The position numbers were made by a program, and so were the translations under genes. A DNA stretch of 64,000 bases, taken from the NCBI RefSeq assembly GCF_016808335.1, contig NC_053143.1, forward strand, positions 53,847,441 through 53,911,440, written 5' to 3'. Source of the stretch: Panicum virgatum. Taxonomy: Eukaryota; Streptophyta; Magnoliopsida; Poales; Poaceae. Every line of letters begins with the position of its first letter. The stretch's first letter is position 1. Shown here in pieces: positions 10,416 through 50,422 of this stretch. Below the pieces are notes generated by a model, which ran no database searches, was not told where the DNA came from, and worked only from the letters and a program-made list of their open reading frames with translations.

Positions 10416-13378
10416 CTACTGGTTCAGGAATTCTTCTATGACATGGATGGCTTCTATACGGACGGCGTCTGCTCGTGCTATGATTGCTTCATCATCCTTG
10501 TCATCGCCTGTTACTATCTGCCGACTCAAGGTGCTTATCTCTGCAAACTCTGCTTGTATCTGCTCGGTTATTTCCTGGGTCTCTTGTTCGGAGTTTGCAA
10601 TGGAAGTTTCTTTGGCTTGGATGAGCTTCTTGGTGGTACGAACCTTTTCTTTGAGTTCTGCCAGTTCTTTCTTCAGGAGGTCGAGTCGCTTCTTGTTGAT
10701 AGACACGTCAGCTTTGGTATCTAGAGTTGCCTTCTTCTGGTTGAGGGCCTTGCACTTTTGGGTAATGTCAGCTTTCAGAGAAGCTTGAGAGCGATGTGCT
10801 TCCATCCTTTGTTGTGCTTTACTGACTTCTATCCGAAAGAATGGGAGGTTGCTGGCTGACCAGAGCTTGATTTGCAATGGCTCCGGGAGTTGGGGTTCTA
10901 TTTGCTTGAAGATGTTCTTTATTTTGCTGGAATCATCAACCAGAGCGATGATTGGAGCAGATAGAAGATCCCTGATGAGTCGAAGCTGATGTGACAAGTT
11001 AGCCGATTGCTGAAGAGATAATGTTTCTGCTCCAGGGACAATCAGACCCATTGATGCCGGGTCGAAGGAAAGCAAATCTGAAATGTCAAAGCTCTAAGGA
11101 CATCTCTGGAGTTAGAACGATATGCTTTTATGGAGTTATCGGCTGGTTTAGAATTAGTTTTGTAATGTCACCTGTTCTGGAGAAGAAGTATTGGTCGGTT
11201 TGGGAGCAATCGTCCTATCAGAGCTGGTGTTAGCATCAAGAGCCTCGACTGTATCAGCTTGTTCTTCGCTTGTATCCATCAGTGCATCAGGAGATGCAGC
11301 CGTCTCATGTTGATTCAGGTCTTCTACATTGGAGGTTTCTTCAGCTACATCCTGGAAATAGAATTACAATCAACCAGAGCATATATGTCTGAAATAAAGA
11401 AGAAGGTTTTGAAAGATGAGTTACCTGGTTGGTGTTGGACTCTGATGGACTCGGAGTTGCTGGTGCTGGTTTCTTGATCACTCGCCTTGTGATCATCTTC
11501 CTTTTCTTGGTCAAGACTCGGGGGGCAACTACTGCAGAGGCTTGTCTTTGTTTGAAAGCCGACTGAAGTAAGTCTGGCTGAATAGTCATTATCACTGTCT
11601 TCATTGATGGTGATCCTTTGCAGAAGAGTACATCAGGAGCAGTTGGAAGGAAGTGAAATGGCACCTCGGTACTGGTCATGGGTTCTGGACCATCTTGTTG
11701 CCGCTAACAGGATGAGTAGGATTAGCCAAGAGGAAGGGATAGAGGACTCCGGAGGAATAAAATACAAAAATTCAGTACCTCTTCCTCGGGGATTACATAT
11801 TCAGGATCGATTTGCTGCAGTCGAGGACCTAGAGCTTTTCTGAAGACATGAGTTCTCCACATGTTCCACCAAGTATCAAAGCCGATTGATGAGGAGATAA
11901 AGAACAGATCGGCTGGTATTGGGATGTGGAGGTCATCAAACATGCCGTAGCACCTTGAACTGGTGAGACCATCAGGCAGATCGGCTCTGCTCTCCGCCAA
12001 GTGGTGAATATGGAAGTGGGGAGGAACCTGTCCTAAGCCAAATTGCCGAGCTGCTATGACTGGCTGGTAAGATTCATTACCTGGCTTGATAATTCTATTA
12101 GAGGTGCTGATGCCAACAGGAAGGAAGCTAGGTCGAATCATCAAAGAATACAGATGCCGAGTGCTGTCGTCATCGGCAAAGCTATCTAGTCTGAAGGCAG
12201 TTGGGTTCTCAAAAGATTCAGATTCGGTAAATGGGAAATATAGGGGATTATCTAGTCCTTTGTAGAAGACTTTGAACCAGTTTGCTGCATCTGTTGAATT
12301 CAGTTTACTGCCAGGGAGACTGAACAAAGCTTGGCCATAACTAGTACATCTAATTGGTTTACCATTCTCATCAGGAAAGGAGTTCTTGGTCAGGCGTTGG
12401 AAGTTGGGAATATGAGGTTGGAAGTACAGTTGTGCCCACAACTGAATGAACCACCAAGGGCCTCCAGTTCTCAGTTTCTTGTGGTTGAGCAAATTGGATG
12501 TCATTAAATGGAGATATCTATATGTTTCTCCAAGAAACAGTTTGCCTAGGCTAGTGTGATTACCATGGGCCAGGTGGTAGGCCAAGGGGAGATAGTTCTT
12601 AGTTGGAGCTAAAGAAGGACCACAGAAGATGAAGTGCTCTAGCCAAAGATTTAAGAAGGCTATGTGTTCCTTTTCAGTCACTGGACCTTTTGTTTTCATG
12701 TGCTGACTCATGTAAGTACCCCAGTTTGTGCAGTTGACTTTGGAAGAAAGTTTGAAGGGGACTTCTGCCATTTTGTGAGCAGCAGGATTAGGAGAGCTAA
12801 TGTCTAGTCCAGTGATCATGGTAATGTCCAGCAGAGTAGGGGTCATGGGTCCATGACCAAAGAGGAAACAATTCAGAGCATCAGACCAGAAGTAGCTGAT
12901 GGTTTTCAGAAGATTGTCATCTTTGTCAAGGGGTGACAGTGATAGACTAAGTGCATCAGCTATGTTCAAATCCGGCCATAAGGGCATGTGAGCTTTTGCT
13001 ACTCTGTTGTACCATGTAATCCAGCTCTCAGGTGGATTAGGCCAGGCTCTTATGCAGTCAGCCCAGAGATTTAAATCAATGTTTTGACTCACAAAAGGGA
13101 TCCTATTTGCTTCACAAGAGATCAAATCTATGGGGTTTTCATGGGTTTGTGGGCCAAGACAGAAAGATTTTGGGTTAGAGGGATGCGGCAAAAGGATGTC
13201 TGACACCTGGAGTTCAGAGATTCAGAAGCATATGTATGGTGTCATGTTTCAGAATTTTAGTTTCAAAAGCTTGGTAAGCTAAAGAAAATTAAAGGTTTGG
13301 GCCAAATATTACCTTCAGGCCGCAGATTGCCGTATCATCGGTTGCAGAGTTTGTTGTCTGAGTTGCAGAATCTGCCAT
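10416..13378 (-). CDS. antisense plant-mobile-domain gene of the Tat element (5 exons, open)
   Basis: Exons by eye: 13313-13378, 11779-13206, 11425-11703, 11172-11351 and 10416-11093. All junctions are GT-AG and all phase 0, giving 877 codons including the stop, with no interruption. The start is ATG at 13378 (MADSATQTT). Exon 2 resembles the plant mobile domain (aminotransferase-like, PMD) found in host MAIL/MAIN proteins and in antisense ORFs of Tat retrotransposons: LWADCIRAWPNPPESW, LLDITMITGLDI, GPWWFIQLWAQLYF. Exons 3-4 are basic and then acidic linkers. Exon 5 is a long helical, lysine/glutamate-rich coiled coil (KKRLDLLKKELAELKEKV). That this frame stays open while sense gag-pol has about ten lesions suggests recent constraint, or recombination with an active copy. 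The domain assignment rests on general resemblance. Confidence 0.75.
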
Positions 13379-17169: not shown

Positions 17170-17825
17170 TCACATGAACTGTACGGGTGGCAGCTGGTCC
17201 GTCTTCTGGAAGATTTTGCACAGCACCCTGCTCTCATCCAGCTGCACGTACACACAAGTTAATTAATCTCCAAACTTAGAGCTCCAGATCGAAGTTGTCT
17301 GAGAGAAAAATTAAATGTGGTTTTCATGTAAGCTAGCAATGCATCGATTTAATTTGACTGCTGGAGGCGTGTACATAGTACGTACCATCATGCTGGAAGT
17401 CGACGGCGAGACCTTGGTACCATCGGCAGGGAGGCGGCGGTATTCCTTCATGAACCAAGTTGTCTTCTGACCCCTAGGCCAGCGTCCCCTGTAGAAGACG
17501 AGTGTCTTGTACATGCCGAGCACCTCGCCGTCAGCGGTGGAGGAGAAGATATCCTTGTCGGTGCCCACGACGTTCCAGTAGCCTGAGCCGGCGGCGCGGC
17601 AGGGACGGGAGCTGTTGCCGTACTTGTGGGTGCTGGGGCTGAAGAAGTACCACACGCCCTCACCACCATTTACGCCCTTGGCTGGTAGGTCCCACGGGTC
17701 GAACTGGTAGATGTCGAGTTCGGCCACGATGGGGATAGGGCAGGGCTTCGCGGCGGCACGTTTGCACAGGTAGTGAACAATTAGCTCCTCGTCCGTTGGC
17801 TGGAACCGGAACCCTGGAGGCAGAT
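17170..17825 (-). CDS. NAC-domain exons 9-10 of the fusion gene
   Basis: Exon 9 (17386-17825) encodes NAC subdomains A (LPPGFRFQPTDEELIVHYL), B (AELDIYQFDPWDLP), C (YFFSPSTHKYGNSSRP..GSGYW) and D (KTLVFYRGRWPRGQKTTW). Exon 10 (17170-17241) encodes subdomain E (VLCKIFQK) and a short tail to TGA 17170-17172. An ATG at 17841, 16 bp before the acceptor, would allow a stand-alone 175-residue NAC protein. However, a TCTGCAG acceptor at 17826 joins in phase to the CBP60 exon, so the fusion reads ..KDRRVG-DLPPGFRF. The usual WKATG of subdomain C is WNVVG here. There is no long C-terminal activation region. The alternative is a separate short NAC gene. Confidence 0.8.
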
Positions 17826-20800
17826 CTGCAGATGGGTACATTAAAATAATAGCTCGTCGGTTACTGAACTACTGAAAATTTATTTAGTAATTCTGCTCAG
17901 TCTAGATATATAGATGCAGCAAATGAGTGTTCTATAAGAGCTTCCTTTAGTGACCGAATCTTCATCCAACATGGCACTGGGAGAAGTCGATGCAACCATT
18001 GGAGAACACGAATCCTTGAGAGAGAAAGAAGTCGACTCATACTTGAGAGCAGGGTTAACAATTTCGGCGAAACACCGGGATCCGAAATTTCGGTATTTTT
18101 CGGTATATTTCGTTTTCAAATTCAAAATTCAACAAATTTCGACCGAAATTCAACGAAATTCGCCGAAATTTACCGAAATTTCGGAACGGAATTCCGTTTC
18201 CGCTAAACACCGGGATTTGACCGGAAAACGAATTGGTTAACCCTGTTTGAGAGTCGATTGATTGCTCATTAAAAAATTGGGCATGGGAGCCGGAGCTATG
18301 GTGGTAGCAGTTGATTGGGTGGGCAGCGTTTCTTTATTGTGCATGCACTGTTCGTTGGTCTGCTCTTGTAATTTTTTTAACCATTCTAATCTGATGTGAC
18401 TCGTGGGACCCATGAATTGTCAGGAACCAATTCAACCACTGCTGATGCTCTAAGGATTTTGTTTTAACACGCCTCTTGCATTATTGGTACCTTTCAAGTA
18501 GCGTAAAATCAACCTTATTAAAAGGATGTATAGTACGTACCTCCCACACGACGATCCTTCACCCAGAATGCTTCTGATATCCCTTCTTGGATTCTCTCGT
18601 CTTGGCGGCCACTGGCTAGCATTTTTACGCCCATCTTGAACTTTCCAGTTCTAGCAACAAAGGATGTCACCTGGAAAAAGGCATCAGCGAGACATGCCTC
18701 TCCATCATCAAGGGCTAAGATGAGGTCACCTCCTAGGACTGATCCTTCTTTTCCAGGCCGTGGACACACTATGCCACGGCTGAACTCATCCCAAGTCCAG
18801 TAATCCTGATCACCATCGACACTAAAGTCTCCGTGGAGAGCTACGACCTCAACAGAAGCTGAAGACAGGGGACCATATGTGATCCTCGTGTTGTTCTCAT
18901 CGAACAGAGCTACTTTAAGATGGTTCCCATCATATGCTTTTATTTGCTCACGTGTGTAATACGTCTCGCACACCTTATTCACGAATCGCAAACGGTATTT
19001 GTTGTGCATCATCCTCTTTAGCGGTCGCCTGAAAAATGTTGTACAGTGGCTAATAAATATGGATAGCAAGAATAGTGACAAGGTCCGCGCAAATGCATGT
19101 CTGGCTCTGTGCTAATTGATTCTGTGCACAACTTTGGTAGTTCAATGTAATGAGGGTGAATTGTAGGAATAATGCACCTTTCATCTGAATCATCAGGCTC
19201 AAGTGGCTCAATGAGAACACCTCCTCTCCGAGGAGTCTTCTCTGACATGAGGCGCATGGTAGGCAAAACGCTTTTAATTGACTTGTGCTGGCAACTATAC
19301 AGCGGCATGAGCTGCTCAAGAAGGTCCCAACGACGCTTTCTCAGCTCCACATTAGGTGTATCCAATATGAGGTGCACTGGAAGTGCTGTTTGGTTCGTAT
19401 TAAATTCCGTACCTGCAGAATATAACGGTTAAGGCATTTATGGGTGAAGTGAAAATGTCAAGAGGCTGAACTTAGAAAACTGAGTAAAAAAAGGTTGGCC
19501 AATACTATAACATTACTTTTTTTAGACAATGGAAAAGATTCCGGCTTCAAAGTTCAAACCCCTCTAGAGAGCGGCATCAGTCTGTAATACTATAACATCA
19601 TAACTACTACCTCTTGTAATCCTAAATCATATTACAAATGGCTTAATTAGTAACAAGAAAATAAACTGACCTACAGTTTCCAATGCATATGTGCATTGGT
19701 GTAACAATAGGTTTTCATTCTGAATGCAACCTATTGTCTTTTTGTGGATAAAAATATGACAATATACTTCTTTTAGAACTCCTTATCAATCGGTAGTGTT
19801 ATTTTCTGGACCAAGCAGTGGTGTACACACGTTTCGATTTTCCGGCCCTTCCTATTAATGGGATGGCATTCGTTTTATTCTTGTATATGATCTCGTTTTC
19901 TTTTTCCCTATAGTGTTGACCAAGTGTCTAGCTAGAATAATATTTTGAAGTGGCCAAAATACACTGACTTACATGTTAGCATCTTCAAAATATACAGTAA
20001 AAATCCACACAGAAATTAGAACCGGCCAACTCACCGATAGCATGAAACGGAACATGGTCATCACCCATAAAATTCTGTCCCGTGCCGATGCCAACCAATG
20101 CCGATGACAGTAGTCCATCTCCAAATAAAGTATTAGGACGATGCAAAAAGGAAAAGAAATTAATAATGATCTGCACTATTGAATGGATCAAAGTAACTAG
20201 AACAAAAATATTCAAATTGAAGATTAAACAACAAGGTAAAATGTTGTGGTGATCAAGGTAAAATAAGCAAATGTATACTGTACAAACCCAGATAAACTAT
20301 CTTCATATTGCTGTGGATCTTATCGATATTTCTTTTAGGTTTGTTTGCTACTACAAAAAGTTCGGTAATAAGCTTGTAAAATTAAATTAACTTACAAACC
20401 CCTTAATTATAAAGAGTTGAGTAAAACTGACCTAGTTATATCCTAATAATACATGTTTTCATTTTGAATACAACGTATTGTGTTTGTTGTTCGAAATACG
20501 ATTCTTTTATGTCAATCTTGTTATATATACCATTATACTCCTATTGATGAAAAAAATATTTTCTAGCCATTGACATTAACGATAGTGGTTCCTTTAATTT
20601 TATTTTAGTAATAGAACATATACATATATATTAATTAAGTCAACCTAAGTACACACACGTGTGAGAGAGAGAGAGAGGGAGAGAGAGTGCGCGTGTAGCT
20701 ACACCTAACTAACCATTGAATGTGATTTGATAATATGGTAGTTCGGTACAATAATATATGGTAGTTGATAGTTTGCAGCAGTAAGAAATTCTATTTGCTG

Positions 20801-23800
20801 CTCAGATTACAACTTACTCATGGTTTCACTTTTTAAGAGTTTAATATCTCAAAGAAATAATCATAAAAAAAATCACATAAGTAACCAGCATAACCAACTG
20901 TTTCCAGGAGCCCCCAAAAAGTTGTTCCCCATAGCATTCTGGTCCGTGAAGTCGTAACTCGCCAACATCTCATCAATAGCTATATAATATTGCAAACATA
21001 TGAATTTTTTTAATTAAACCTGCACTATGGACAGTACATGATCTAGATAATATAAATAAAAAATATAACTAGGTTGGCAGCTGTTAGTGCATTGTTTCAA
21101 TGATTCAGGTACATAAACAAAGGTATGCATAAAACTAGGCGTGGATTATCTCCATTTTCTTGCTGATCTTATTGATATTCTCTAATGCTTGTTCATTACT
21201 ACTAAAAATGCTCTAACACTAAAAATGTTCGTATTTGTAGAAAATAAGAATTTATGTTCATATTAAAAAAGGTTTGTAATGAAAACAAAATATATAGAAT
21301 TGTTTTTAGTGTTAGTTTCAGCAAACTATGTTTTTGGTGGAAAACTAGAAGAATATTTGTAGGTAGCAGCTTCACAAAATTACACTTCTAATTTATTTTC
21401 CAAATAGAAGTGTATATTTTCAAAATTACATGTGGAGTACCTGTGTGGAGTTTATAAATTTTAGTAATGTGAAGTTGAAAAAGTACCAATACATGAAACA
21501 TCACAAAGAATATAGAAAGATTCAAATAAATACAGAAGAACTGAGAATGTATTTGTAGAATATAGGAAAAGAGTACTTACCTTGTCTGTTTGGCCTGTCA
21601 TGGCCCCGAACAAAGAAAGGATTTGACAACCCTTCTAGAACTCGTTCTTCTGTTGGCGACACTACCATCACCCCAAGCCTAACCTTCTTGTTACTAGAGT
21701 TACTGAATATTTTAGAACCGCTGTGAGATTTAACCCCATGAGCTAAGTTAAATCGGCCGTTACTCACTATTGATTTTACTGACTGATCCACACCTCCTGC
21801 TGCTGAATTTGGTTGTCGTGCTTTCTTTATGTTTCTCTCGAAATCCTCTCTGGACCAATTGTATTGATTATCATGTTGATTGAACTCTGCATTAACAACA
21901 ACCAACTCAACTATTGCAGAAGCAAGGGGTTCATCTTCTACAGTTTGATCCTCATTATTATATTCAACTAGAGCTACACTTATGTCTATGCTTTGCCCCT
22001 TTTCAATTTTCTCAGTCACCTCAGATGTAAATTTGAGTTTGTATCTTGGTTGCTGCACTTGATTCGATTGTGATCTGCAATAGAGAAAATTCTGCTACCT
22101 TATGAAAATTCTGCAAAACAACTGAGCAAAGCAGATATATGGTACGAGCAAACAACACCTTGAAGCAGCAGAATCATCACCACTTGTGCCCTTAGTGTGA
22201 AGCTCCAGTTGTTTACATAGGTCACTGTGACTTTCAGTAAGCTTCTCCAACTTTTTGCTTTGATCGTTGTAACTTTCAGTAAGCTTCTCCAACTGTTTGC
22301 GTATTTCACTAGTGTCATCCTTACTTTCAGTAAGCTTCTTTGATTGTTTGCGCATCTCCTCTTTGAGCTCTGTCAGTATGTGTATGACCTCGCTCTGAGA
22401 GTAGATTAACTGTGTTAGTACGATCATTTTTGTATGCTGGCAATCTAAAATTCTAATAAGAGAAATTTTGGGTAACAAGTTCAAATGGATCTAAAAATGG
22501 GATTTTGTTTCAAGTTTCACATTTCATTACACAATTTTATTCTTAACATTTCAATATGGAGTACAAAGCTTTAATAATTTACTGCCACATGATCAAATGT
22601 AAGCACTCCTACAAAATATGAGGTAGGAAATGCATCATATTTGAATTATCCACCTCGGTCATTACTAGACATAACAAAAAGTAACCCTAAATTTGTCCAA
22701 TGTTGCTTCTGTCATTTTAAATAATAATATCCCGAAGTACTCATGCACACGCACATAGCTCAAGCTAAGGTAAAACATGTATGCATTGCTTTGCAAACCA
22801 TGTATATAGAAAGCCATGAGCATATTGATTTTTTTATGTAAAACATATAGTTCAAGATAAGGTTTCAATTACAAACATGTCAAACATCGTACAATGAAAA
22901 AAAAGAAACTAACACTACTACAAAACAGGCCTTTGTTCCAGGCCATTTGTCCCGGCAGCCTTTGGGCCCGGGGGCCCGGGACAATAGGTGGCTTTTGTCC
23001 CGGGTCCAACGGCTAGCCGAGCCAGCGGGGGGACATGGGCCTTTTGTCCCGGTTGGTGCCTCCAACCGGGACAAAAGGCCTTGGGCCCCTTATCCCCTTC
23101 CCTCTCCCCCCGCCCGAGCCATTCAGCTCACTTGTTTTCTTGCTGTTCTTGGCTCGGGATAGAGGAGTTCTTGCTCATTTCTTCACCACATTTGTGAAGA
23201 TCTTTGATTCCCCATCCATCCATCGGCGCTAAAGGTTTGGGGCTTGTTTTTCTCTTCTTCCTTGGCTTGTATAGCTCATTTCATGCTTTAGAAATAGAGA
23301 AAATGTGTAGCTAGCTCATTTCTTGGACATTTAGCTAGCTAGATTGCATATGTAGGTGTGATTTTCTTTTAGATTTAGATGAGTATGTGGATAGTAGAAA
23401 TTTTTAGAATGAGTGTAGACACTTCATGTGATGTACTTGTATATATGACCATATTGTGGATAGTTGATTTTTTTATTCATGAATGAATTAATGAAATGAG
23501 TATATTATAGAATTTTTTGTATTATGAATGGATTATTTTGACACTCTATTGATGTATTTAATCAGGCTCACATTGAAACCATCTAGAAGCTAAAAAAATC
23601 TTTATTTCGAAACAATTATACGTCCTTAATCTGCCTGTGCCAAGTGCTGTGCCTATTAATCGTAAATGTTGGTGCTGCGACTGGCCGATTGGTGACATCC
23701 TTGTACCGCACCGTGTTCCCCCGAAAGGCAGTGTCATCACCGCAGGGTTGAGGTTACTGACATATACATTTTCAGAAATAAAGGTTTATTTTTCTTCTAG

Positions 23801-26800
23801 AGGGTTTCTGGATATTGAAAAGAGTGTACTCCTGGAACTGAAGGGTGTCAAAGTAATTAGAAGTTATAGAGATTTCTTTCAATTAATTAGAGATTTCTTG
23901 AGGATTAATGATACATTTCATCTTTTTTATATGATTTCATTGTTATTTGCAAGAGTTATTAATCTGATCATTGTAATTGTAATAGTAAATAATTTTTGCA
24001 TTGTAATGGTAAGAATTTATAATTTTGTGGAAAATAAAGGTATTTTTCAGTAAAATATGGGTTCAGGAGCTGGCGGGAGTGGCGCCGATGGGGGTGATCG
24101 TTGTCCTTCTGGAGAGAAGGGCACAACTCGAGTAGGTCGTCGGTCCAAAAAACCTAGTGCTTTTCATAGGGTAGCGCTCCGTTATTTGGAAAAAGAATAT
24201 AGAGAATGCATGGCAAGGGGCGAGGAACCTCCGTTTGATCTTGAGGATTTATTGCGGCGTTACGGTTCGTCACCACCAAACTCGGAGGTTTCAGCTCCGC
24301 CATCTTCTTCTGCGCCAGCAAGAAATCCGTTAGAGCATTTTGTGTTCCAACGCAAGGACGGTTGAAAACCTATGTGTTGTTGACCGAATTTTTAAGTTTC
24401 ATGTATAGTACTCCTTTGTTAAGTTCTGTAATGGATTAAGTACTCCTTTTAATTAATCAAGATGTATGATGGATATTGCATATCTTTTAATTATTCATGT
24501 TATGTTACATTTAGTTTAATTTAGGTTTGATATATTTTATTTATTCGATACGTGTAAAGAATTCAAATCGATTTATTTAAAATGCAGATTGACCGGCAAT
24601 GGATGTACAATGCTGACCGACGTTCGAAAGAATTCATTGATGGCCTGCATTATTTTTTGTCTGTGACTGAGGCAAACAAACAGAATGGTTTTATGTGCTG
24701 CCCGTGTGTTCATTGCAACAATAACAAGGATTACTCATCTTCAAGAATCCTACACAGCCACATTTTCGCAAATGGTTTCATGGAGAAGTATGTTTGTTGG
24801 ACGAAACACGGAGAACAGGGGGTTACCATGGAAGACAATGAAGAAGAAGATTTTGACGACCACTTTCCCGGGAATGCTGGAATCGGTGCATTCGAGGACG
24901 ATATTCCCATGGAAGAGCCCGAAGCAGATGTAGCAGAAAATGATCCCAGCGACGATCTGGGGCAGGCATTGCACAATGTGCAGGCAGACTGTGAGAGTGA
25001 AACGGAGAGGTTGAAGTTCCAGAAGTTGTTAGAGGGCCACCATAAGTTGTTGTACCCAGATTGTCAAAATGGATTGAAGAAACTTGACACCACCTTGGAG
25101 TTGCTGCAATGGAAGGCGACAAATGGTGTATCCGACAAGGGATTTGGTGAATTACTCAAACTTGTTTAAAAATGCTTCCTAAGGACAACGAATTGCCTGC
25201 CACAACGTATGAAGCCAAAAAACTTGTTTGCCCTTCAGGACTGGAAGTGCAAAAGAAACATGCATGCCCCAACGACTGCATCCTCTACCAAGGCGAGTAC
25301 GAGAATTTGGATGCATGTCCCGTATGCAGTGCATTGCGTTACAAGATTAGAAAAGATGATCCTGGAGATGTCGAGGGGGAGCCTCCCCGGAAGAGAGTTC
25401 CTGCGAAGGTCATGTGGTATTCGCCTATAATACCACGTTTGAAGCGCCTGTTTAGAAATAAAGATAATGCTAAGTTGATGCGATGGCACAAAGAGGAACG
25501 CAAGAAAGACTCGATGTTGAGACACCCCGCTGATGGGTCGCAGTGGAGAAAAATAGATAGAACGTACCCTGAATTTGATTTGGATGCGAAAAAGATAAGG
25601 TTCGGTTTGAGTACGGATGGCATGAATCCTTTTGGTGAGATGAGCAGTGGTCATAGCACTTGGCCTGTGACTCTTTGTCTGTACAATCTTCCACCATGGC
25701 TCTGCATGAAACGAAAGTTCATCATGATGCCAGTGCTTATCCATGGTCCAAAGCAGCCCGGAAATGACATTGATGTGTACCTAAGACCATTGGTCGAAGA
25801 ACTCTTATTGCTCTGGGGCGATGAAGTTGTACGGATGTGGGATGAATACAAACAGGAAAACTTCAACCTACGAGCATTGCTGTTCGTAACGATCAATGAC
25901 TGGCCTGCTCTTAGTAACTTGTCAGGACATTCGAACAAGGGATATAAAACATGCACACACTGTTTAGATGATACCGATAATATATGGTTGACTCACTGTA
26001 AGAAAGTTGTATACATGGGTCTTCGTCGATTTCTTCCCATCAGGCATGCGGTACGAAAGAAGGGCAAGCATTTCAAAGGCCAAGCGGACCACCAAACAAA
26101 ACCGATGCACCGTAGTGGTAAAGACGTCTTCAACATGGTAAAAGATCTAGAAGTTATTTTTGGAAAGGGATCTGGTAGCCAACCTGTTCCGAACGAAAAC
26201 GGAATGGCGCCCATGTGGAAGAAGAAATCTATATTTTGGGAGCTACCATATTGGGAAGTCTTAGATGTTCGTCATGCAATTGATGTGATGCACCTCATGA
26301 AGAATTTTTTCGTCAACCTGATAGCATTCTTGGGAGTGTACGGAAAGACAAAAAATGCAGTAGAAGCACGTCAAGAATTGCAACGTATGGAAGAACGAGA
26401 TGCCTTACATACACAACAGCGAGATAATGGACGACAATACTTAAGTCCTGCCAGATATACTCTTAGCAAGGAAGAGAAAGAAACCATGTTTGACTGCTTG
26501 AGCAGTATAAAGGTTCCATCTGGATACTCATCCAATATAAAAGGAATCTTAAATTTGGCAGAGAAGAAATTTACAAATCTCAAGTCCCATGACTGCCATG
26601 TGCTTATGACCGAACTTCTTCCGGTTGTGCTGCGGGGGATTCTGCCTAATAATGTCCGGTTAACCATCGTGAAGATATGTGCCTTCCTCAACACAGTTTC
26701 TCATAAGATAATTGACCCGGAGAATTTGATAAAGCTGCAAAACGATGTGGTGCAATGTCTTGTTGGCTTTGAGCTGATATTTCCACCATCTTTCTTCAAC

Positions 26801-29800
26801 ATCATGACACATCTTCTAGTGCACCTTGTCAAAGAGATTGATATCCTCGGACCAGTATTTCCACACAACATGTTCCCATTCGAAAGGTTCATGGGGGTAC
26901 TCAAGAAATGTGTTCGTAATAGAGCTCGTCCAGAAGGAAGCATCGCCAGTGCCTACGGAACTTAGGAGGTCATTGACTTTTGTGTTGACTTTATTGATGA
27001 CCTTAAACCGATTGGTGTCCCTGAATCGCGATATGAGGGGAGACTAACTGGAAAGGGTACATTAGGAAAGAAATCTTATGTCTACACAGATGATTTCTCA
27101 TTCAAAAAAGCACATTATACGGTTCTTCAACAATCATCCTTGGTTGACCCATATATCGAGGAACACAAGAAAATTTCCCGGAAAAGTCTGAGGCATGGAT
27201 TACACGTGAGCACGTGAACACTTTCTGCAGCTGGTTGCGGAAGCATCTAATGCATAACATGGATATAAGTGAACAACTGTTCTTATTGGCTAGGGGACCA
27301 TCTTGGAATATCTTAACATACCAAGGGTACGAGATAAATGGAAACACATTTTATACGATAACCCAAGATAAAAAGAGTACCAACCAAAACAGCGGTGTTC
27401 GTATGGATGCCACGGACAATAATGGAAAAAAAGACACATATTATGGCTACATTGAAGAGATATGGGAGCTGGATTACGGTCCCAATTTTAAGGTGCCTCT
27501 ATTTCGTTGCCAATGGGTTAAGCTATCTGGAGGAGGGGTAACAAAAGATGAGTATGGGATGACAATAGTTGATCTCAACAATCTTCGGTATAGAGACGAG
27601 CCATTTGTCCTAGCCCAGGATGTCGCTCAGGTTTTATACATTAAGGACATGTCCAGCAAGCCAAAGAAGGGGATAAACAAGCAAAAGGATGAGCCTAAGC
27701 GACACAGTTCTATCAGGAAAGAGAAACATCGTTGGAGTGGAGGATAAGACAGACTTGTCAGAAGAATATAATAATTTTGTTGCCATTCCACCTTTCGAAG
27801 TAAATGCTGATCCATGCATCCTGCTAGCCAATGATGATGCTCCATACTTGCGCCATGATCATAATCAAGGGACATTTGTGAAGAGAAAGTCTGTTACCGC
27901 TAATCCTTCATGTACTTGAATCATTTTATATTATTGTATAAAAACATAATCGGAATTCGAATACTTTTATTATATATGTACTGTACAATTATACTTTATG
28001 TGTTATATATATTATTTTATATATTTTTCACTTAATTACCAGACTCAATTATAATTTTCATTCAATAATGGATTACTCAACTAATTTTATTTATTTCATG
28101 AAATTACATTCATATTAACACACTATACTCTCTCACTAACACACAATCTCACTAACACAAACTATCTCTCAAACTGACACACTACTCATTAATATCATGA
28201 AATTGCTTAATTTTATCTAAAATTCACTTTTTAAACGTTAATATCGTGATAGAATCCACTTTCTGTCGAAAAGTAACCGTTTGAAAAAATTTGTTCACCT
28301 AATATATTTTTGCATGGTCAAAATAACAAATATGATTTCAAAAAAGTTAGATATTTCATTGACCCAATCACTTGAATGAAAATTAATTATTTTTGTTGCA
28401 TGTATCAAGTTTATATAGAGATAAGAAATTTTGTTCCATAATTTTTGGAACCATAATTTTATTAACTAAATTAACAAATGAAAGCCAATTTTAAAAGAGA
28501 AGTAAAAAGAAACAAAAACAAACATAAGATTAGGCGGGAAACGAGGGAAAAAGGGCCCCTTTTGTCCCGGGTGGTAGATCCACCCGGGACTAAAGGAGGG
28601 CCGCGGGCTGGGAATTTTCTCGGCCCGCCCAAAAACCCCTTTTTGTCCCGGGTGAAGCCACCACCCGGGACAAAAAGGGGGGGCCTTTTGTCCCGGGTGA
28701 AGCCACGACCCGGGACAAAAGGGCCTTTTGTCCCGGGTCGTGGATTCACCCGGGATAAAAGGGGGGCCTCCTATATATTCACTCAACCTCCTCCTTCCTC
28801 CAACACGCATTTTCCTGATCTGCGCCGCGCTGCCGTCGTCTCGCCCATCGCGCCTCCTGCTCCGCCGCCGTCCACGAGCGCCGCCGCCTCCACGCCCCGG
28901 CAGCCTTGGACGACGACCCCGCCAGGCCACTCACCGGTGCGCCGCCGTCCCCGGCCCCGTGCCACCTCGTCTTCACCACCTCCGGCCATCCCCGGCCCCC
29001 GCCGCACGAATTGACCGCCGCTCCACCTAAAATAGAGCACCAGTAAGCCCCACCGCACTGCCCCCCCCGCCACGATAGCGCGAGCACCGGAGCCGCACGC
29101 CCGTACTGGTGCTCGCATCGCTTCGCGCCGCCGCCGCCTGGCCCCACCGCCGCCGGGACAGCCACTCCGCGCCTCCCCTGCTTTGCGCCGCCGCTCGGGC
29201 ACGCCGTCGCCGTCCACCCCGCCGCCTCGGCGCACGCGGGCCCCACCGGGCCGCCGCCAACCAGCCGCCGCGCGGACCGCCGCCGCGGGTCCCTTCTCCC
29301 CTGTGCCTGGCGCGCCACCGCCACTGCGGTGTGCGTGGCTGGGCGGGGAAGACGCCCGTCCCACTGACCAGCGGGGCCCGCTGGTCAGTGGAGGGAGTAG
29401 GGGGGATTTTTCTTTATTTGTTGATTGATTTCGGCTGAAGCTCGTAAAATCCGTATAAAATCAAAGGAAAATGGGAAAAATATGAAATAAATTTTGTTAG
29501 ATTTGTTAGAGTAAGATCTACGGAGGAAAAATATCCATGATGGCGAAATGACCTCTTTACCCCTGTAAAAATTTAGATTGTGTTTAGTCTTGATTAATTA
29601 GTTTCTATAGATCTGTTAATCTAAAAATTATGAAATTTTTGCAGTAGCTTACTTTAAGTATGAGTGGTTCACTGTAAAATTTTCTTGATCATAATACATA
29701 GTTTAGTACATGTTTATAAAATGTACCTAGCTAGTATATTGCATAGGGGTAAATAATATCTTTATATATAAGATTCTTTAGAAATCATGAGAAGTAATTT

Positions 29801-32800
29801 AATAAATGTTTTTGCAAGTCATGTTCTGTTGATATTAAGTGGTACTCTAGTTTGATACTTAGGTAGATTAGTTGTTTCTAGCACTAGGGTTTCAATCATA
29901 ATTTCTGTGCTAGGAAAAATTCCTTATTTTTACCGGAGCCAATGAACAACTAGTTATGATTGCTGTAAAAATGTGAACACTTGAAGTACAGTATAACTGT
30001 TTTTAAAAATCAGTTATGCTTTATGCCTTAATAACTTGTGTTATTTTTCATACCCTGTAAAGTTATCCATTAAATCTGAAAAATTTGCAGAGAACTCCTA
30101 ACGTCCGCCATCCCGGCCCGGACCCCGCCGCGCGAGCCCAACGTCCCCGAGCGCCGCCGACCTCACGCCGCCGCCTAGAGCCCCGCGTCCTCCGGCTCGC
30201 CCCGCCTTCGCCTGTGCGAGCCCAATTATTTGTTTAAATTTGTTTAGAAATTAGTTTAAATATGGATTATTTGTTTAAATTTGAAAATATGGATTGTTTG
30301 TTTAGAAATTATGTTGTAAAATATATATTATTTGTTAATTTGTTTAATTTTGATGACAAATAGGGTGTTAATTACTTTTGAAATTATATTATTTAGAGTT
30401 CATGTTATTTAGAGTGAAATCATAATTTATTGTTTAGAGTGAAATCATAATTTGTTGTGTAAATAAAGGTATATTTACAAATTCTCGAAATGTATGAATG
30501 TATGTATGTATGTGTAAAGTGAGTTTAAATTTCTTTTAAATATTTCATGTATATTTCTTGAATTCATCCATCGATCGTTACTTAGTGAAAAAACCGTCTA
30601 GAATATTTCATATATAGATGATTTCAAGTTTATTTCTTGAATTACATAGAGAATATTACTGGACCTCATCCATCGATTGGTACTTAGTTAAATGCTCGCA
30701 AATATGTGGATTATTTAGAGAATTTTTTAAGGGTTTTATTTGTATTCATATTTTAGTTACGATGGACCCGCGACACACAGACGCGGAAGACGAACAGTTC
30801 CTGTTGAATATGATTGGCGAAGGTCAAGGAGATGTCCCTGAACAAGCTGATGATGGCAGCAATACCGACATATATTTGAATATGTCCGGTGATGGAATTG
30901 AGGCACCATCTATTTAGGATGACGTTGCTGCTGAACAAAGTGCTAATGTACATATCACAACTATACTTATTTGTAGTGACAATCATATTTTCATCTGAAT
31001 CTATATGAATACTATGAATGTTTTTTTATAGCCGTCTGGATCATCGTCGCAGCAGAAAAAGACGAAGTGAGGCCCAACAAAAAAACTGGAAGGGCGGTTC
31101 ATTATAACGGAAGTTGGTCCAGATGGCGAACCGATCGCTCCAGAAGCTGCCGCCAAAAAATTCATAAGACAATCCGGATGTATTGTCAGGGACCACATCC
31201 CGATCAGCTTCAGACTCTGGAAAGCTTACAATCCAAGCGAGGAACGTGATGCGGTACCCAAAAGAGAAAAAGAATGGTGCTGGCGAGAGCTTAAGAAAAA
31301 CTTCACGGTTCCAGCTGAATCCGAAGAGATATGCAAGCGCTGGACCCTGAGTAAGATGGCCGAACAGCTGCAATCATTCAAGAAAATTTTGACGAAGAAA
31401 TATATCAAGACCGTGACCACACCCGTATTTACCGGCGAGCTCGAAAAGCTCAGGGGTCACTGGGATGCATTTGTGGAATACAAGTCTTCAGAGTTTGGGC
31501 TTCAGAAGGTGCAGAAGGCCAAAGACAATGCCTCGAAGAAAGTGTACCATCACACTCTAGGCCAAGGAGGCTACAAGTTTGCAATACCCAAATGGAAGAA
31601 GATGGAGCAGGATCTGCTTGACAGAGGCATCCAACCTGCAACCTTGAACTGGCCTGAAAGGTCAAGGACCTAGTTTTATGGTCACGGGGGAAGCTTGGAC
31701 CCATTGACTGGTGACTGCATCTATGGGCGAAACATCCAGCGAGCAGCCCAGAGACTACAGGAGGCCATGCAAGCAGTGGCCGAGGAAACATTCCAGAGGG
31801 ATATAGAGAGGGACGAGCTGACTTACGCCCTTGGGAATCCAGAGCATCCGGGCCGCACAAGAGGCAAAGCCGTGGTTCCGTGGAAGTATGGGTTCAGGGA
31901 TTACATTGAATCATATAGAAGCCGGCAAAGAAGAAAGAATGATGAGCGGGAGCACATGCGAAGGCTAGAGGAACGGCTCATGTCACACGATCAAAGACTG
32001 GAGGAAGAAGTTCAACGCCAAGTGGCCATAGCAATGAGCCAGCAACAACAAGCGCAAACGGTGCCTCCAGAGCCTAATGTCGCAGCCGATCACCTGTCTC
32101 AGCGGAAAAGCAGCTGCGCTTCAATAGACGTCGCCGTCGCCGAGCCAACGGGGATCCAGGCCGTAGTTGAAGCGTCGGCCCCGCAGCGATTTCCAGTGGA
32201 TGAGATCACCCAGCGGACACCTTGTGACATGCAGACTGTCGTTAAGAACTTAATGTTCACTGTTGCGTACGGTACCGCCATGCCAACCCAACCAGGCGAC
32301 GTGTACCACGGGCAGCAAATTCCGCCTGGATACACACGAGTTGGCATGGAGCAGGTGTGCCAGGGTTGGGAGACGCTCAAGCTTGATATTCCTGGAGGCA
32401 ATGGGGAGAGGACACTAGCAGAAGTCATTCATGGCTACATCCTATGGGATAAGCGCTACATTGTCCTAAAGTCGGATGATCAAACACCAAGACCGGTATC
32501 TCAGCATGCCTCTCCAAGGCCGGCATCTCCGCAAAACTCCCCAAGGGCAGCACTGTCTCGGCAAGGATCACCGGCACATTCTCCATCACCATCATCTCAT
32601 GCGCCGATGAACAATCAAGCGTCACCGTCGCCTCCATGGTCACCCCCTCCGCCGCCGGCAAAGAAGCAGAAACGGCCGCCGACAAAGAAGGTGGCTGCAC
32701 CGGCTAAGGAGCCTCCAAAGAAGAAGGAAAAGGAGAAGAAAACCAAGGAGGCTCCTATTAAACCCTGGGACATGAGCCACGAAGAATGTGATCGGATAAC

Positions 32801-42160: not shown

Positions 42161-44770
42161 TCGGTTTGGCATTTTCGTGTGACCCCCTGATTTTGATCGA
42201 AATTATTCACATAACTCCTCGGTTCAGATCGGCTCCTCACCTCCGCCTGTCGCCGCCGGTCGGTCCTCCGTGGCCGCCTCCTCGCCGTCGCCGCACCTGT
42301 CTGAGCGGAAGGCACTCTAGCTCACCGGATAGCCAGGCAGCGCTCGCGGGGAAGGAGGCCACCGTGGCTTGCTTGCCCCGTGCTCACTGCTGACGCAGGG
42401 GGAACATCTTTGACCAGAGATCTGCGTGCCAGCTTCCTCTCCCTGCTAGACACGGATCCATGCCTCGCCGTTCTGGATGGCCTTCTGCTCGTACCAGTGC
42501 TCCCTCCGCTGCTCTCTGTCGCCGCTTCCTCGGCTAGGCGCAGCTCCAGTGCGCTCATCTCAGTCGAATCGTCGCGCGTCGATCCGGCCAAACATCAGGT
42601 ACCAGCTTTTCAAATCAACTGGAGAAACTCAGCTGAAATTTGCAAGTGGATAACACTTTTAGGGTTGGATGCTTGTGCATCTCACAATTCAAAGTCGAGA
42701 TTTTTTCTAAGCTTGTAGTCAGTTAGAATTCCATTCTTCCCTGTTCATGGTATGCAGGTTCTGAATCTCAACTGAAAGTTCGCCAATCCCTTTTTCGAGG
42801 TTCAAATCCTGAAAAGCTTTAAAATCCAGCTAGGAAAATTCTGGATCTCATTTCGAAGTCGAAACATCTAAAAGCTTTAAACCAAATGTTTGATTTACTA
42901 ACTATTTTCTTCCATCAAGTGCTTCCCCTGGTTTCTGACAATTTGTTGATCAAAGTCAAATTTGGCCTTAGTGGATATAAAAACTTAAAAAGGTGATCTC
43001 GTGGTCGTCAGAATACACCACCAAACTTAGCAAGATATAGGATAATACCACTAGGTCCACTACTGATGAGTAATCTTTTTTTTTTCGAAAGACCCGGACA
43101 GCTTCCGGCATGTATTAATAAGGAGAAAGCATTTTACATGAAAACCAACCTAACCTGCCAAATTGCAAGTCGGAGTCAACGCCCAACACCATTGCATTGC
43201 TTGACCAAAAAATATGTTCAGTCCTGTGCAGACTGAGCTATGCAATCTACATATAATTTTTTCCAACCATTACTCCGCCGTTTCACTCTTTCAGCTTGGT
43301 ACGCTACTTCCTGAACTATGCACCTTGGCGTCCGTCAACAAAGAGTTCTGATTCCTTACTTCTGTTAGGTCATGCTTGATTTACCTTTCTGCTCAGTGTC
43401 TCTGCTTCTGTTCCTTCCTGCTGGACGCTAGCTGGTTGGAAAAGAGATCTTTCTGGGAGCGTAAAATTCACATTGGCACATACTGATCTCTTCTTGTACA
43501 TCTCTCTGATCAGTGGCTTACCAATTTACCCATATTCAGGTAACTTTTATTGTTCTAAGAGCTCTGATTTAGTGCTGATTCTTCTTTTCTGCTAAGCTGC
43601 TCATGTTGTGTTCTGCTTGCCCAGTCTTCTTGTTGATTTTGAGCCAATTTATCTAGCAAATACTCCATCAGTCCATCTATTAATTTTTCTCTCTCTTTCT
43701 ATTTTTTATAGGTGTCGCAGCTTGATATGCGGGTTCTCTCTTGTGCTGATTGTCAACTTTCTGTCTATTGATTTCTCCAAGCAGTCCCTTTTCATTTTCT
43801 TGGGCTTGTTTAGAACTTGATATATCAAAGTAATGATGGGCTGATCATCATCACAAAATGGTTCCATAACATGGTTGCAGTGGCCAGTGGATCTTATCAT
43901 TAATCCTGTTAGCTTGCTGGAAGATAGATCTGCAAGGTACTGTGCTACAGATATTGATTCTTTGTTTACATGCCTTTGTAATGTTGTTACTATTAGTGAT
44001 TTGTTATCACTGCTTCACAGCTAGAATGTGAAAATTCAATTACAGGCTTCAGGGGAGGGAATATCCATAAAAAGATGATTCATCTATGTTAATAATAAAG
44101 TATGACTAGTGGAACATTACTCTCAAGGATCAGTATGTGGGATCCTATGTAAGATCTGTATTTGATTACGCTAGGATCGAGTCAAATGATAAGCCACCTT
44201 AACTGAAAGAACTAAAATGAATGTCAACTCAAACATGATAATTCACTATTGATATGTCAGTACCTCACCACATTTGTTAATTTATCCAGCACCATCATTG
44301 ATCTTTTTTTTGTCTTTGAAGATTATTTATGCATTATCCGGAAAAGGCACCATTTACCCTAGTGCATTAGCTCCTCAGAAACACATAGCGTTTTCTGTAA
44401 ATTTACTCAGCTCAATATTTCTAATAACAATAATGAACTGATTATTATTTATTCTGAGCATGTTTAATAATTTACAAGGTTGTACAACTTCCCAGCTCAA
44501 GTAACCTACACTTTAAATGCGGTTCAAAAGCTATGTACCATTAAAAAAAGTCATCAATAAACCTCCATAGCTCAACTTGTTCAAGACATAAACATAAATT
44601 AAGTAGTGATTTATGTGAATCTGTTACTAGGATAAAAGTTTAGTGATCCTTGTCTAGCTTTTCAAGCTGTCTTAACACATGTTGTGGATTCATTGCCAGT
44701 CTTCAAGTCTGCTACCCTTGCAAATAAATCACTTGGAATTTCTTGAAGACCTTCCTCAGAAGTTTGGCTA
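42161..44770. other. 5' region of the NLR gene
   Basis: A GC-rich patch at 42230-42600 is followed by AT-rich DNA with several CAG/GT sites, resembling untranslated leader exons and introns of a resistance gene. No coding exon is recognised. A segment at 43078-43250, starting with a T-run and TTCGAAAGACCCGG, may be a small repeat remnant. Confidence 0.35.
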
Positions 44771-45853
44771 ATGGCAACCATATTACATTCTCTGGTTTTA
44801 TCATGTGCTAAGAAGTTGCAAGATATCATAGCAGAGGAGGCAATTCTTATTCTAGGGGTAAAAGGAGAGCTTAGAGAATTGCTGAGAACAATGAACCAGA
44901 TACAATGCTTTCTTAATGATGCTGAGCAGAGAAGGACAGAAGGGTCGGCAGTTAACAATTGGCTCGCTGAGCTGAAAGATTCTATATATGAAGCTGATGA
45001 TATTATTGACATGGCCAAAATTGAGGGAAGCAAGCTGCTAGCAAACTATCCTTCATCAACATCCTCGTCATCAAGAGACTCGATTGGGTGTACAGGATTC
45101 TCGGTTTTCTCTTGCGTTCCTACTATTCAGAGACACCGTCGGATTGCAATTCGAATAAAAAGTTTCAATGCAGAACTTGAGAAGATTACAAAGCTAGGTG
45201 AAAGATTTTTAAAGCTTCAGAATGTGCAGACTAAAGAGGATGTTTCAGCAGTGAGGAAGATGAAAACTTGCCAAATTTTGGAGCCTAACCTTGTGGGGAA
45301 GGAAACATCACGTGCCAGCAAAAGAATTTTGGAACTGGTGCTTGCACACAAGAAAAAGAAAACTTTTAAGTTTGGTATTCTTGGAACCGGAGGCGTTGGT
45401 AAAACAACTTTGGCTCAAAAAATCTATAATGATGAAAAGATAAAAGGAACCTTTAGGAAACAAGCATGGATTTGTGTTTCTCAGGAGTATTCTGAAGTTG
45501 CTTTATTAAAGGAAGTTCTTGGAAACATCGGGGTAAATTATGATCAAGATGAAACTGTGGGTGAACTCAGTGCAAAGCTTGCAATGGAAATTGAAAACAA
45601 AAGTTTATTTCTTGTGTTGGATGACATTTGGCAGCATGGTGTGTGGAATAATCTACTTAGAATCCCGCTACACACTGCAGCTACTACAGTGATTCTGTTA
45701 ACAACTCGAAATGATACAGTTGCACAAGCAACTGGGGTGGACGATGTTGTCACACCCGATTTTAAAAACAAAATCGAATGCATAACTATATATATGCCAA
45801 GATCAAGTTTCATACATACAGTGACATTGTAAGTGAATAATCAGTAACAGTAT

Positions 45854-45983
45854 TATTAGAATGAGCAACTCAATCTATTCCATGGCCCAAAGGGGCAGAA
45901 TATACATGTACACAATATGCAAAGAGGCCCTCCAACTAAAGGGAAATACAAGAGAGATACACACAGCACATATATATCTGACA
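45854..45983 (-). repeat. copia 3' LTR
   Basis: Direct repeat of 50295-50422. Plus-strand ends TATTAGAATG and ATCTGACA. Confidence 0.93.
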
Positions 45984-45987
45984 CCCC

Positions 45988-48900: not shown

Positions 48901-49502
48901 TGCAGTAGTAGAAGCAGCAACCATGGGTGCAGGTGAGCTGGATGAGGGATTCGTCATAGTGGACGAGGGAAGGCGAAGCCAGTCAAGCTCCCAAAGATGC
49001 TGAGAGTCATGGTGCTGAGGCCCAGTCCCAACAAGAAGTCCCATGCGAATATCCTGAACACAACAAGAGTCCGACTCAAGAATGATCCGACATCCATGAT
49101 CAGTGATCTGGCCAGCAGACATCAGCTGCATAGTGAGGCTAGGAACATGTGAACGGTAGGCACATGAAAGGAAGACGTTGAAAGAACACCTCGTCCAGTA
49201 ACTGGAAGAGAGGTGCCATCAGCTATCTGAACAACAAGAGGGTGATCAAGAGAAGACAAGGAAGATAGCTGGGTTGAATCTGGAGTCATATGAAATGAAG
49301 CACCAGAATCAAGGAACCGTTGAGACGATGTGTCATGGTAAGGATGCGGTAGTGGGGAATCAGAAGCACGAGCAATAGTCCCAGAAAGAGAGGAAGTAGC
49401 TGCATTGAGGCGGCAAAACAATGTGAGCAGCTCTTGCTCTAAGGCAGAGCCCGAGATAGTGGTGGAAGAGGCCATCAGCGAGACCAGAACTGCTGAGCTC
49501 AC
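45988..49502 (-). pseudogene. pol: copia pol (protease, integrase, RT, RNase H), broken
   Basis: Protease FLDSGASFHM lies near 49300. The GAG-pre-integrase/HHCC region reads [17 protein letters not shown], with Q where the family's first zinc-binding histidine is expected. The integrase core has [19 protein letters not shown] and [10 protein letters not shown]. Reverse transcriptase (in 46600-48249) contains WVYKIKTRSDGS, LDVKNAFL and LLLYVDDMIITGD. RNase H has AYSDATWANDPYDRRS and SSAEAELRAM. Lesions: one-base deletion near 49165, insertion in a G-run near 48665, stop and frameshift near 48570, TAG after FLINR near 48288, and frameshifts near 46575 and 46270. Non-functional. Confidence 0.92.
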
Positions 49503-50280
49503 TCTGTATCTTTTTCTTTCTTTTTTTTTATAATGAGCAGGGAGGCTCGAGAGCAGAGCAGGGGAGGGGAGGCTCGAGTAGAGCAGAGGGCTCGAGCCGG
49601 GAGGGGTTGGGTTCGCGCGGGCGGCAGGGGCCCGCGCGGTCGAGCAGAGCCCTCGGGGCTGAGGCCACGAGGCCGCGATTGAGGGGCGGCGAGCGGCCCA
49701 GCAGGCGCGGCTGCGGCCCGGTGGCGCGGCTGCCGGCCGCAGAGGCGCCGAGGTGCGAAGCCGGCGGAGCGCGCGAAGACGCGGAGCCGACGGGGCGCGC
49801 GAAGGCTGCCGCGGGAATAGGACGACGGCGGCCGGCGCACGGACCCCCGGGAACAGGGATCCGCGGGAGCTGGGACCGCACGGGCGGCAGGGGCCCGTGC
49901 GGTCGAGCAGAGCCCGCGGGAGCTGGGACCCGCGGGGCTGAGGCCGCGAGGCCGTACAGGCGGCAGGGGACGCGCGGCTGAGGCCGCGACGGAGTGGCGG
50001 CGAGCGGCCCAGCGGGCGCGGCTACGGCCCGGTGGCACGGCTGCCGGCCGCAGAGGCGCCGAGGGACGAGGCCGGCGGAGCGCGCGGAGGCGTAGGCGTC
50101 GGGGCAGGTGAGAGGCAAGAGGAAGGAGAGATCCGGGAGGTAAGAAAAGGAAGGAAAAGGGGAGAGGGAGAAGAGGAAGAAGAGAGGTGGAGCTGCTCTT
50201 CGCCGGCCGGCGGTGGCTGCTCACCGGCGGGTCGCCGATGGCACGCCGGCGACGGTGGAAGGGATCCTGGCTGGGGACCT
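49503..50280 (-). repeat. GC-rich, internally duplicated region in the place of copia gag
   Basis: Very GC-rich, with a 49.6-50.1 kb internal duplication. The block GGCGGCGAGCGGCCCAGC recurs at a spacing of about 309 bp (near 49685 and 49994), and GGGCGGCAGGGGCCCG recurs at about 261 bp (near 49618 and 49879). ORFs on both strands are arginine/alanine/proline-rich. No UBN2/gag fold or CCHC zinc knuckle is visible. The element therefore lacks gag, and this may be a replacement or captured host GC-rich DNA. Confidence 0.65.
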
Positions 50281-50294
50281 TAGCTCTGTTACCA
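50281..50294 (-). other. copia primer-binding site
   Basis: Minus strand TGGTAACAGAGCTA follows the 5' LTR directly. It differs at one of the first 12 bases from the TGGTATCAGAGC site used by many copia elements. Confidence 0.8.
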
Positions 50295-50422
50295 TGTTAG
50301 AATGAGCAACTCAATCTATTCCATGGCCCAAAGGGGCAGAATATACATTTATACAATATGCAAAGAGGCCCTCCAACTAAAGGGAAATATAAGAGATACA
50401 CACAGCACATATATATCTAACA
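50295..50422 (-). repeat. copia 5' LTR
   Basis: Begins TGTTAGAATG and ends ATCTAACA on the plus strand. Followed by target duplication AGTAT. Confidence 0.93.

What the first reader, a model, noticed from the sequence alone, without database searches (positions are those of the whole stretch)
17170..37668. In-frame fusion of two CBP60-type domains with a NAC domain in one gene
Seen: a CBP60-type exon ends in phase 1 after ..VKDRRVG with GTACGTAC, and the NAC exon begins after TCTGCAG in the matching phase, giving ..G-DLPPGFRF. Ten exons have fully consistent phases and sum to exactly 758 codons with no stop. Known: CBP60 and NAC are separate DNA-binding regulator families. Inference: one protein with up to three DNA-binding modules, with NAC replacing the CBP60 C-terminal calmodulin-binding half. 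I do not know whether this architecture is already described in grasses.
Basis: partly seen in the sequence, partly recalled or inferred. Interest (0 to 1): 0.88.

Follow-up and report, generated by a model that had tools for sequence, protein, structure and literature searches.

The report
Grass CBP60 proteins with swappable baits
A switchgrass gene model really does fuse two copies of an immune-regulator DNA-binding domain to a NAC domain, and it belongs to an apparently undescribed grass gene family in which the same core carries different borrowed domains in different members, much as plant immune receptors carry pathogen baits.

Summary
The fusion holds as a gene model. NCBI independently predicts nearly the same protein (Panicum virgatum LOC120645239 isoform X2; 735 of 747 residues shared).

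The larger result is the family. All named hits carrying the core are grasses. After one largely conserved phase-1 splice donor they carry at least eleven C-terminal modules: NAC, WRKY, MYB, PP2C, ankyrin/PGG, HMA, FLZ, Dof, KH, IDD zinc finger, DUF4408. A Setaria italica and a S. viridis protein are 84% identical up to the swap, then carry HMA and MYB. Spliced-looking unnamed contigs join CBP60-N to NAC at the same point, so annotation merging is unlikely for NAC.

Seven of the eleven modules match grass NLR integrated domains, and the HMA's nearest solved relatives are NLR-integrated HMAs. The three readable NAC modules (two lineages) lack the GYWKATG lysine. I therefore favour an integrated-bait platform carried by a transcription-factor-like protein. 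Fusion and family are well supported; bait function is inferred. Nine literature searches aimed at it listed no description.

The parts
37613..37668 (-). exon 1, start codon at 37668
   Evidence: model; identical to P0001 residues 1-18
37440..37527 (-). exon 2
   Evidence: tblastn 100% with P0001 19-48
22159..22394 (-). exon 3, coiled coil
   Evidence: helices 40-70 and 76-116 in the model of P0001
21581..22074 (-). exon 4, first CBP60-N domain (PF07887)
   Evidence: (3.2e-18)
20899..20979 (-). exon 5, linker
   Evidence: 100% with P0001 292-318
20035..20118 (-). exon 6, linker; 5' boundary uncertain (NCBI reads IGD where this model reads N)
19178..19412 (-). exon 7, conserved linker
   Evidence: part of alignment A2
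18541..19028 (-). exon 8, second CBP60-N domain (PF07887), ending at the largely conserved phase-1 donor
   Evidence: 4.6e-39; donor position
17826..18540 (-). intron between the CBP60-N core and the NAC module
17386..17825 (-). exon 9, integrated NAC domain (PF02365), lacking the GYWKATG lysine
17170..17241 (-). exon 10, end of NAC and stop codon; NCBI isoform X2 uses another acceptor and ends ..TTSIWSSKFGD
22913..35196 (.). 12,284-bp CACTA element inside intron 2, flanked by TAA on both sides; it does not interrupt an exon
   Evidence: Transposase_21 in 25151-26962

Best explanation
The gene is one member of a grass gene family: N-terminal coiled coil, two CBP60-N domains, then an exchangeable C-terminal module spliced on at one largely conserved phase-1 donor. 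Here the module is a stress-type NAC domain. Shown by computation: the fused gene model, the family, the conserved fusion point, the module swaps and the spliced-looking CBP60-NAC contigs. Inferred: it works as an integrated-bait immune regulator. The borrowed module imitates a host protein that pathogen effectors aim at. The CBP60 core, whose predicted fold resembles p53-like DNA-binding domains, sits in the defence-gene transcription pathway and passes the signal on when the bait is hit. A change of module changes what is sensed, as with integrated domains of grass NLRs, but the carrier is a transcription-factor-like protein. Confidence by part: fused gene and family about 0.9; conserved swap slot about 0.85; bait function about 0.45.
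For: Model and NCBI agreement. In some searches (cut-offs 1e-3, 1e-20, 1e-22) every hit named to species that carries the core is a grass. Among 21 proteins that run 50 or more residues past the core, 19 carry a recognised further domain (17 above Pfam's cut-off; HMA of P0004 and NAM of P0012 below it), of eleven kinds; P0002 and P0028 carry none. Among 32 short ORFs that end near the fusion point, 22 show G-T/I within four residues of it (one, P0041, out of register; some rows are near-duplicates), as expected of a read-through G|GTAC or G|GTAT donor; background 5.6%. P0011 reads on into NAC, while P0049 (97% identical over 135 aa) runs through the same donor. Swaps between close relatives: Setaria HMA versus MYB, 84.5% over 258 aa, sisters at 100/99; barley KH versus wheat IDD zinc finger, 73% over 771 aa, sisters at 98/90. 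Dof fusions in T. turgidum, T. urartu and barley are 79-86% identical over about 1,020 aa in the two pairs compared. Seven of eleven modules (NAM, WRKY, Myb, PP2C, Ank/PGG, FLZ = DUF581 [equation recalled], HMA) are grass NLR integrated domains (PMC5819176 passages; Pik and RGA5 rows). The P0004 HMA best matches NLR HMAs: 7a8x, 'NBS-LRR class disease resistance protein', E 2e-22; Pikh-1, 3.6e-22. Altered functional motifs: NAC 3 of 3 readable (two lineages, P0010 and P0011 being sisters); both WRKYs of P0008 (WLKYGQK, WRKYGHK); one of two MYBs (NYWYT); no MxCxxC in the HMA module. CBP60 TF-derived domains are themselves NLR integrated domains in Arabidopsis (PMC6709784 passage).
Against: No functional data. 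P0005's MYB keeps NYWNT, and P0009's PP2C aligns well with PP2C phosphatases, so not all modules look like dead decoys. The NAC module seems to have decayed in Paspalum (P0055) and perhaps in one Urochloa protein (P0003), which also fits loss without function. Seven of 23 genome-annotated proteins with the end of the second domain intact have no further domain (P0002, P0006, P0015, P0025, P0027, P0038, P0057). Ten of the 32 short ORFs do not show the donor signature. The PP2C, WRKY, ankyrin and KH clusters have one member sequence each, and HMA, IDD and DUF4408 rest on one cluster each. P0010, P0011, P0019, P0031, P0038, P0055 and P0057 show only the second CBP60-N domain. The tree leaves 9 of 22 inner branches open. 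No substitution-rate test was possible, because no coding DNA of relatives was at hand.
Confidence: 0.55

Rival explanations
1. Composite transcription factor. The fusions combine two regulators so that CBP60-N and the borrowed DNA-binding domain act on promoters together, with no bait role.
Against: PP2C, ankyrin/PGG, HMA, KH and DUF4408 modules are not transcription factor DNA-binding domains. DNA-contact motifs are changed in the three readable NACs, both WRKYs of P0008 and one of two MYBs.
Confidence: 0.2
2. Fusion without lasting function. The slot behind the conserved donor picks up neighbouring exons by rearrangement; the modules drift and decay.
For: NAC remnant in P0055, 44.8% over 29 aa to P0001; truncated NAC in isoform X2; NAC of P0012 matches Pfam only at positions 1-28 and looks frame-shifted after that; different modules in close relatives.
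Against: The Dof module is kept in three Triticeae species, and Miscanthus and Paspalum share an FLZ fusion, 50% over 302 aa. Seven of eleven module kinds overlap grass NLR integrated domains, which random capture does not obviously predict; no statistic was computed.
Confidence: 0.17
3. Annotation artefact. Gene finders merged a CBP60-N gene with whatever gene lies downstream.
For: In this window the NAC exon has its own upstream ATG (MYPSADLPPGFRF), and exon 8 reads on to a stop a few codons later (VGGTYYTSF*). P0005 still has an MRRSPCC-like MYB start inside. Most fusions are known to me only from automatic annotation.
Against: ORFs joining second domain and NAC in unnamed contigs of 2.2-2.4 kb (P0010, P0011; 24 and 28 member sequences). 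The same splice point is shared by different modules. Setaria MYB, Stipagrostis PP2C and Aristida WRKY join inside the module, without its usual start (usual starts recalled). The Dof fusion was predicted in three species.
Confidence: 0.08

Closest known systems
Grass NLRs with integrated domains, major integration clade MIC1 (Bailey et al. 2018, PMC5819176)
   Same: One carrier clade, a fixed fusion point, many swapped modules, homologous carriers with different modules, overlapping module kinds (NAM, WRKY, Myb, PP2C, DUF581, Ank/PGG)
   Different: The carrier here has no NB-ARC or LRR; it is a coiled coil with two CBP60-N domains. The fusion point is a splice donor after the second CBP60-N domain, not the CID motif
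CBP60 / SARD1 transcription factors
   Same: PF07887 domain; canonical members activate salicylic-acid and other defence genes (PMC10778643 passages)
   Different: Domain duplicated; no further CBP60 region found by Pfam in the scanned members; variable borrowed C terminus
SNAC-type NAC transcription factors (rice SNAC1, ANAC019)
   Same: Exon 9-10 module is nearest to rice stress-induced NAC1 among solved structures (3ulx, E 2.4e-52)
   Different: No own start used in the fused model; GYWKATG reads GYWNVVG
Integrated HMA domains of Pik NLRs and RGA5, and of Rmo2
   Same: HMA module of the Setaria italica relative P0004 matches NLR HMAs best (7a8x E 2e-22, Pikh-1 3.6e-22)
   Different: Carried by the CBP60-N core, not by an NLR; followed by a C-terminal DCSIM, which looks like a prenylation signal (recalled motif). 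Some HMA rows are labelled Rmo2 or 'Protein kinase domain-containing protein', so another non-NLR carrier may already be known; not followed up beyond

Membership tests
CBP60 transcription factors | N-terminal PF07887 domain | tested here: met
   two copies
CBP60 transcription factors | central and C-terminal CBP60 domains with the calmodulin-binding site (Pfam models recalled as PF20451 and PF20452) | tested here: not met
   hmmscan of P0001 at E<=0.01 lists only PF07887, PF02365 and a sub-threshold Laminin_II
CBP60 transcription factors | DNA binding at GAAATTT-type sites | not testable with these tools
   model fold resembles DNA-binding folds, which shows no function
NAC family | PF02365 domain above cut-off | tested here: met
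   140.1 bits, cut-off 27
NAC family | conserved DNA-contact strand GYWKATG (feature recalled) | tested here: not met
   GYWNVVG here, GYWMATG in P0010/P0011; GYWKATG in P0020, P0021 and the four PDB rows
NLR with integrated domain | NB-ARC and LRR domains in the carrier | tested here: not met
   none found in the 31 members scanned
NLR with integrated domain (works like) | fixed fusion point with different modules in close relatives | tested here: met
NLR with integrated domain (works like) | module binds an effector and triggers defence | not testable with these tools
   no experimental data

The most novel reading that the evidence does not exclude
Grasses have an NLR-independent integrated-bait system: a lineage of double-CBP60-N proteins on which effector-target domains are swapped through one conserved splice donor, so that a salicylic-acid-type transcription regulator itself is the sensor. 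It shares much of its bait repertoire with NLRs, including a Pik-like HMA, and in this window it sits head-to-head with a HeLo/MLKL_N-type gene that could be the executor.
Probability: 0.38. Interest if true: 0.95.

Novelty: new variant of a known kind. Interest (0 to 1): 0.85.

Why it matters
In the papers I saw, integrated baits are described as a property of NLR immune receptors (a kinase carrier is hinted at by PDB labels). A transcription-factor-like carrier with the same swapping behaviour would be a new place to look for resistance genes in cereals. It would also give a list of host proteins that effectors attack, read from the genome, and make it testable whether CBP60 regulators sense effectors directly. 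The family may have been overlooked because annotations seem to split it in two (Setaria SEVIR_8G239000/238900, Paspalum BS78_05G255800/255700; inferred from neighbouring locus numbers) or label it uncharacterized.

Tried and rejected

Rows dropped before counts. The sets of 21 and 32 leave out 16 of the 69 proteins because the end of the second domain is missing or weak (P0013, P0014, P0018, P0020, P0021, P0030, P0032, P0033, P0035, P0036, P0037, P0060, P0066, P0067, P0068, P0069). The 23 genome-annotated proteins further leave out all rows from jgi, lgn or ena. P0015/P0016 and P0025/P0026 probably overlap the same loci. Pfam was run on 31 family members plus P0020, not on all 69. Four cores went into A1 and six sequences into A2. 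Searches scored only the best ~8000 candidates; one search scored 4939.

Full report
What was checked. Pfam finds two CBP60 N-terminal domains and one NAC (NAM) domain in the ORFs of exons 4, 8 and 9. A protein search returned NCBI's Panicum virgatum LOC120645239 isoform X2 with both families. The window is therefore this switchgrass locus or a nearly identical one. The two models differ in the last exon and at the start of exon 6 (IGD for N).

Is the join more than a gene finder's guess? The intron between exon 8 and the NAC exon carries 10, 8 and 16 stops in its three frames. Two protein clusters from unnamed JGI contigs of 2.2 and 2.4 kb, P0010 and P0011 (24 and 28 members), read linker, second CBP60-N domain and NAC in one ORF with the join at the same place. 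P0049, from an unnamed ENA contig, is 97% identical to P0011 over 135 aa but runs past the same point into a short tail, as unspliced DNA would. I infer that P0011 is spliced RNA; a retrocopy is not excluded. No RNA read of the window's own locus was seen.

The family. Searches with the whole model (21 hits), with a profile of four trimmed cores (34 hits) and with a profile of linker plus second domain (40 hits) found the core, among hits named to species, only in grasses: Panicum, Setaria, Urochloa, Paspalum, Miscanthus, Aristida, Stipagrostis, Oryza brachyantha, Triticum, Hordeum, Avena and Aegilops (P0037, a kinase with one CBP60-N domain). Candidate lists were capped, and cut-offs were strict, so other lineages are not excluded. 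P0020 (Cochlearia), a plain NAC, is the only named non-grass hit. After the core the proteins differ. Pfam scans of 31 members show NAC (P0001, P0010, P0011; P0012 below cut-off), two MYB repeats (P0005, P0019), two WRKY (P0008), PP2C (P0009), ankyrin/PGG (P0007), FLZ (P0016, P0031, P0055), Dof (P0023, P0024, P0026), KH (P0017), an IDD-type zinc finger (P0022), DUF4408 (P0003) and HMA (P0004; below Pfam's cut-off, but E 2e-22 to an NLR HMA). That is eleven kinds. Of 21 proteins that continue 50 or more residues past the core, 19 have such a module (with the scans); P0002 and P0028 do not. Of 23 genome-annotated proteins with the end of the second domain intact, 16 have a module and 7 do not (with the scans). 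Some rows are probably the same locus annotated twice, and several are half models that show only the second domain.

The fusion point. The core ends at one place in most members. Of 32 short ORFs ending near it, 22 have Gly followed by Thr or Ile there, 21 of them in register, against 5.6% of background windows; 10 do not. Gly-Thr/Ile is what a phase-1 donor G|GTAC or G|GTAT gives when DNA is read through, and in the window the donor is indeed G|GTACGT. So a downstream exon seems to be usual in the family, and any phase-1 module could be spliced on.

Swapping. On a tree of 25 linker-plus-second-domain sequences, seven Pooideae rows with the unnamed P0028 form a clade (96/89). The panicoid rows group with Oryza brachyantha and unnamed rows at 86/86. 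Aristidoideae are unresolved, and 9 of 22 inner branches are open. Different modules occur inside each group. Setaria italica HMA (P0004) and S. viridis MYB (P0019) are sisters at 100/99 and 84.5% identical over 258 aa, then diverge. Barley KH (P0017) and wheat IDD (P0022) are sisters at 98/90 and 73% identical over 771 aa. Some modules last: the Dof fusion is 79-86% identical over about 1,020 aa in the two pairs compared (barley-durum, durum-T. urartu), and the FLZ fusion aligns over 302 aa between Miscanthus and Paspalum. The Paspalum protein has a stretch resembling a decayed NAC before its FLZ (44.8% over 29 aa to P0001).

Surroundings. A gene for a HeLo/MLKL_N-type protein (ATG at 38376, plus strand; PF22215, E 7.8e-7) starts 707 bases from the fusion gene's start codon, in the opposite direction. 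A coiled-coil NLR lies at 44747-56598; its NB-ARC is interrupted by a 9,104-bp insertion flanked by GATGT, and its downstream pieces lie in separate ORFs, so it looks broken. A 12,284-bp CACTA element fills most of intron 2. Whether neighbours of the other family members are similar could not be looked up.

Literature. Nine searches aimed at the architecture listed no paper on CBP60 proteins with integrated domains; I saw top-ranked titles and abstract starts, not all papers counted. One search looked for integrated HMA outside NLRs and gave five papers, none opened. Of the papers named above I read passages only, plus the outline (with abstract) and section 10 of PMC5819176. PMC12787737 and PMC5067614 were also searched for module names, passages only. 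The library lacks most subscription journals and bioRxiv preprints, so absence there is weak evidence.

Noticed in passing
window 38376-38828 (+): Divergent neighbour ORF, start codon 707 bases from that of the fusion gene, coding a HeLo/MLKL_N-like protein (PF22215, 7.8e-7); possible executor partner.
   Followed up: partly
window 44747-56598 (+): Coiled-coil NB-ARC LRR gene (Rx_N, NB-ARC, WH, LRR) interrupted in the NB-ARC by an insertion at 45748-54851 flanked by GATGT; no direct repeats over 150 bp were found in 45601-55000.
   Followed up: partly
window 22913-35196: 12,284-bp CACTA element with CACTACTACAAAA ends and TAA target duplication inside intron 2 of the fusion gene.
   Followed up: yes
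window 39906-40508 (+): C2-domain ORF (PF00168, 5.7e-16).
   Followed up: no
window 11725-13221 (-): Plant mobile domain ORF (PF10536, 1.6e-25).
   Followed up: no
P0037 (Aegilops geniculata): Protein kinase domain fused in front of a single CBP60-N domain: a second CBP60-N fusion type with the partner at the N terminus.
   Followed up: no
P0023, P0024, P0026: Triticeae Dof fusions carry two Dof copies, the first looking degenerate by eye.
   Followed up: no
window about 20118 (-): NCBI isoform X2 reads IGD at the start of exon 6, which I could not place on a canonical acceptor.
   Followed up: partly
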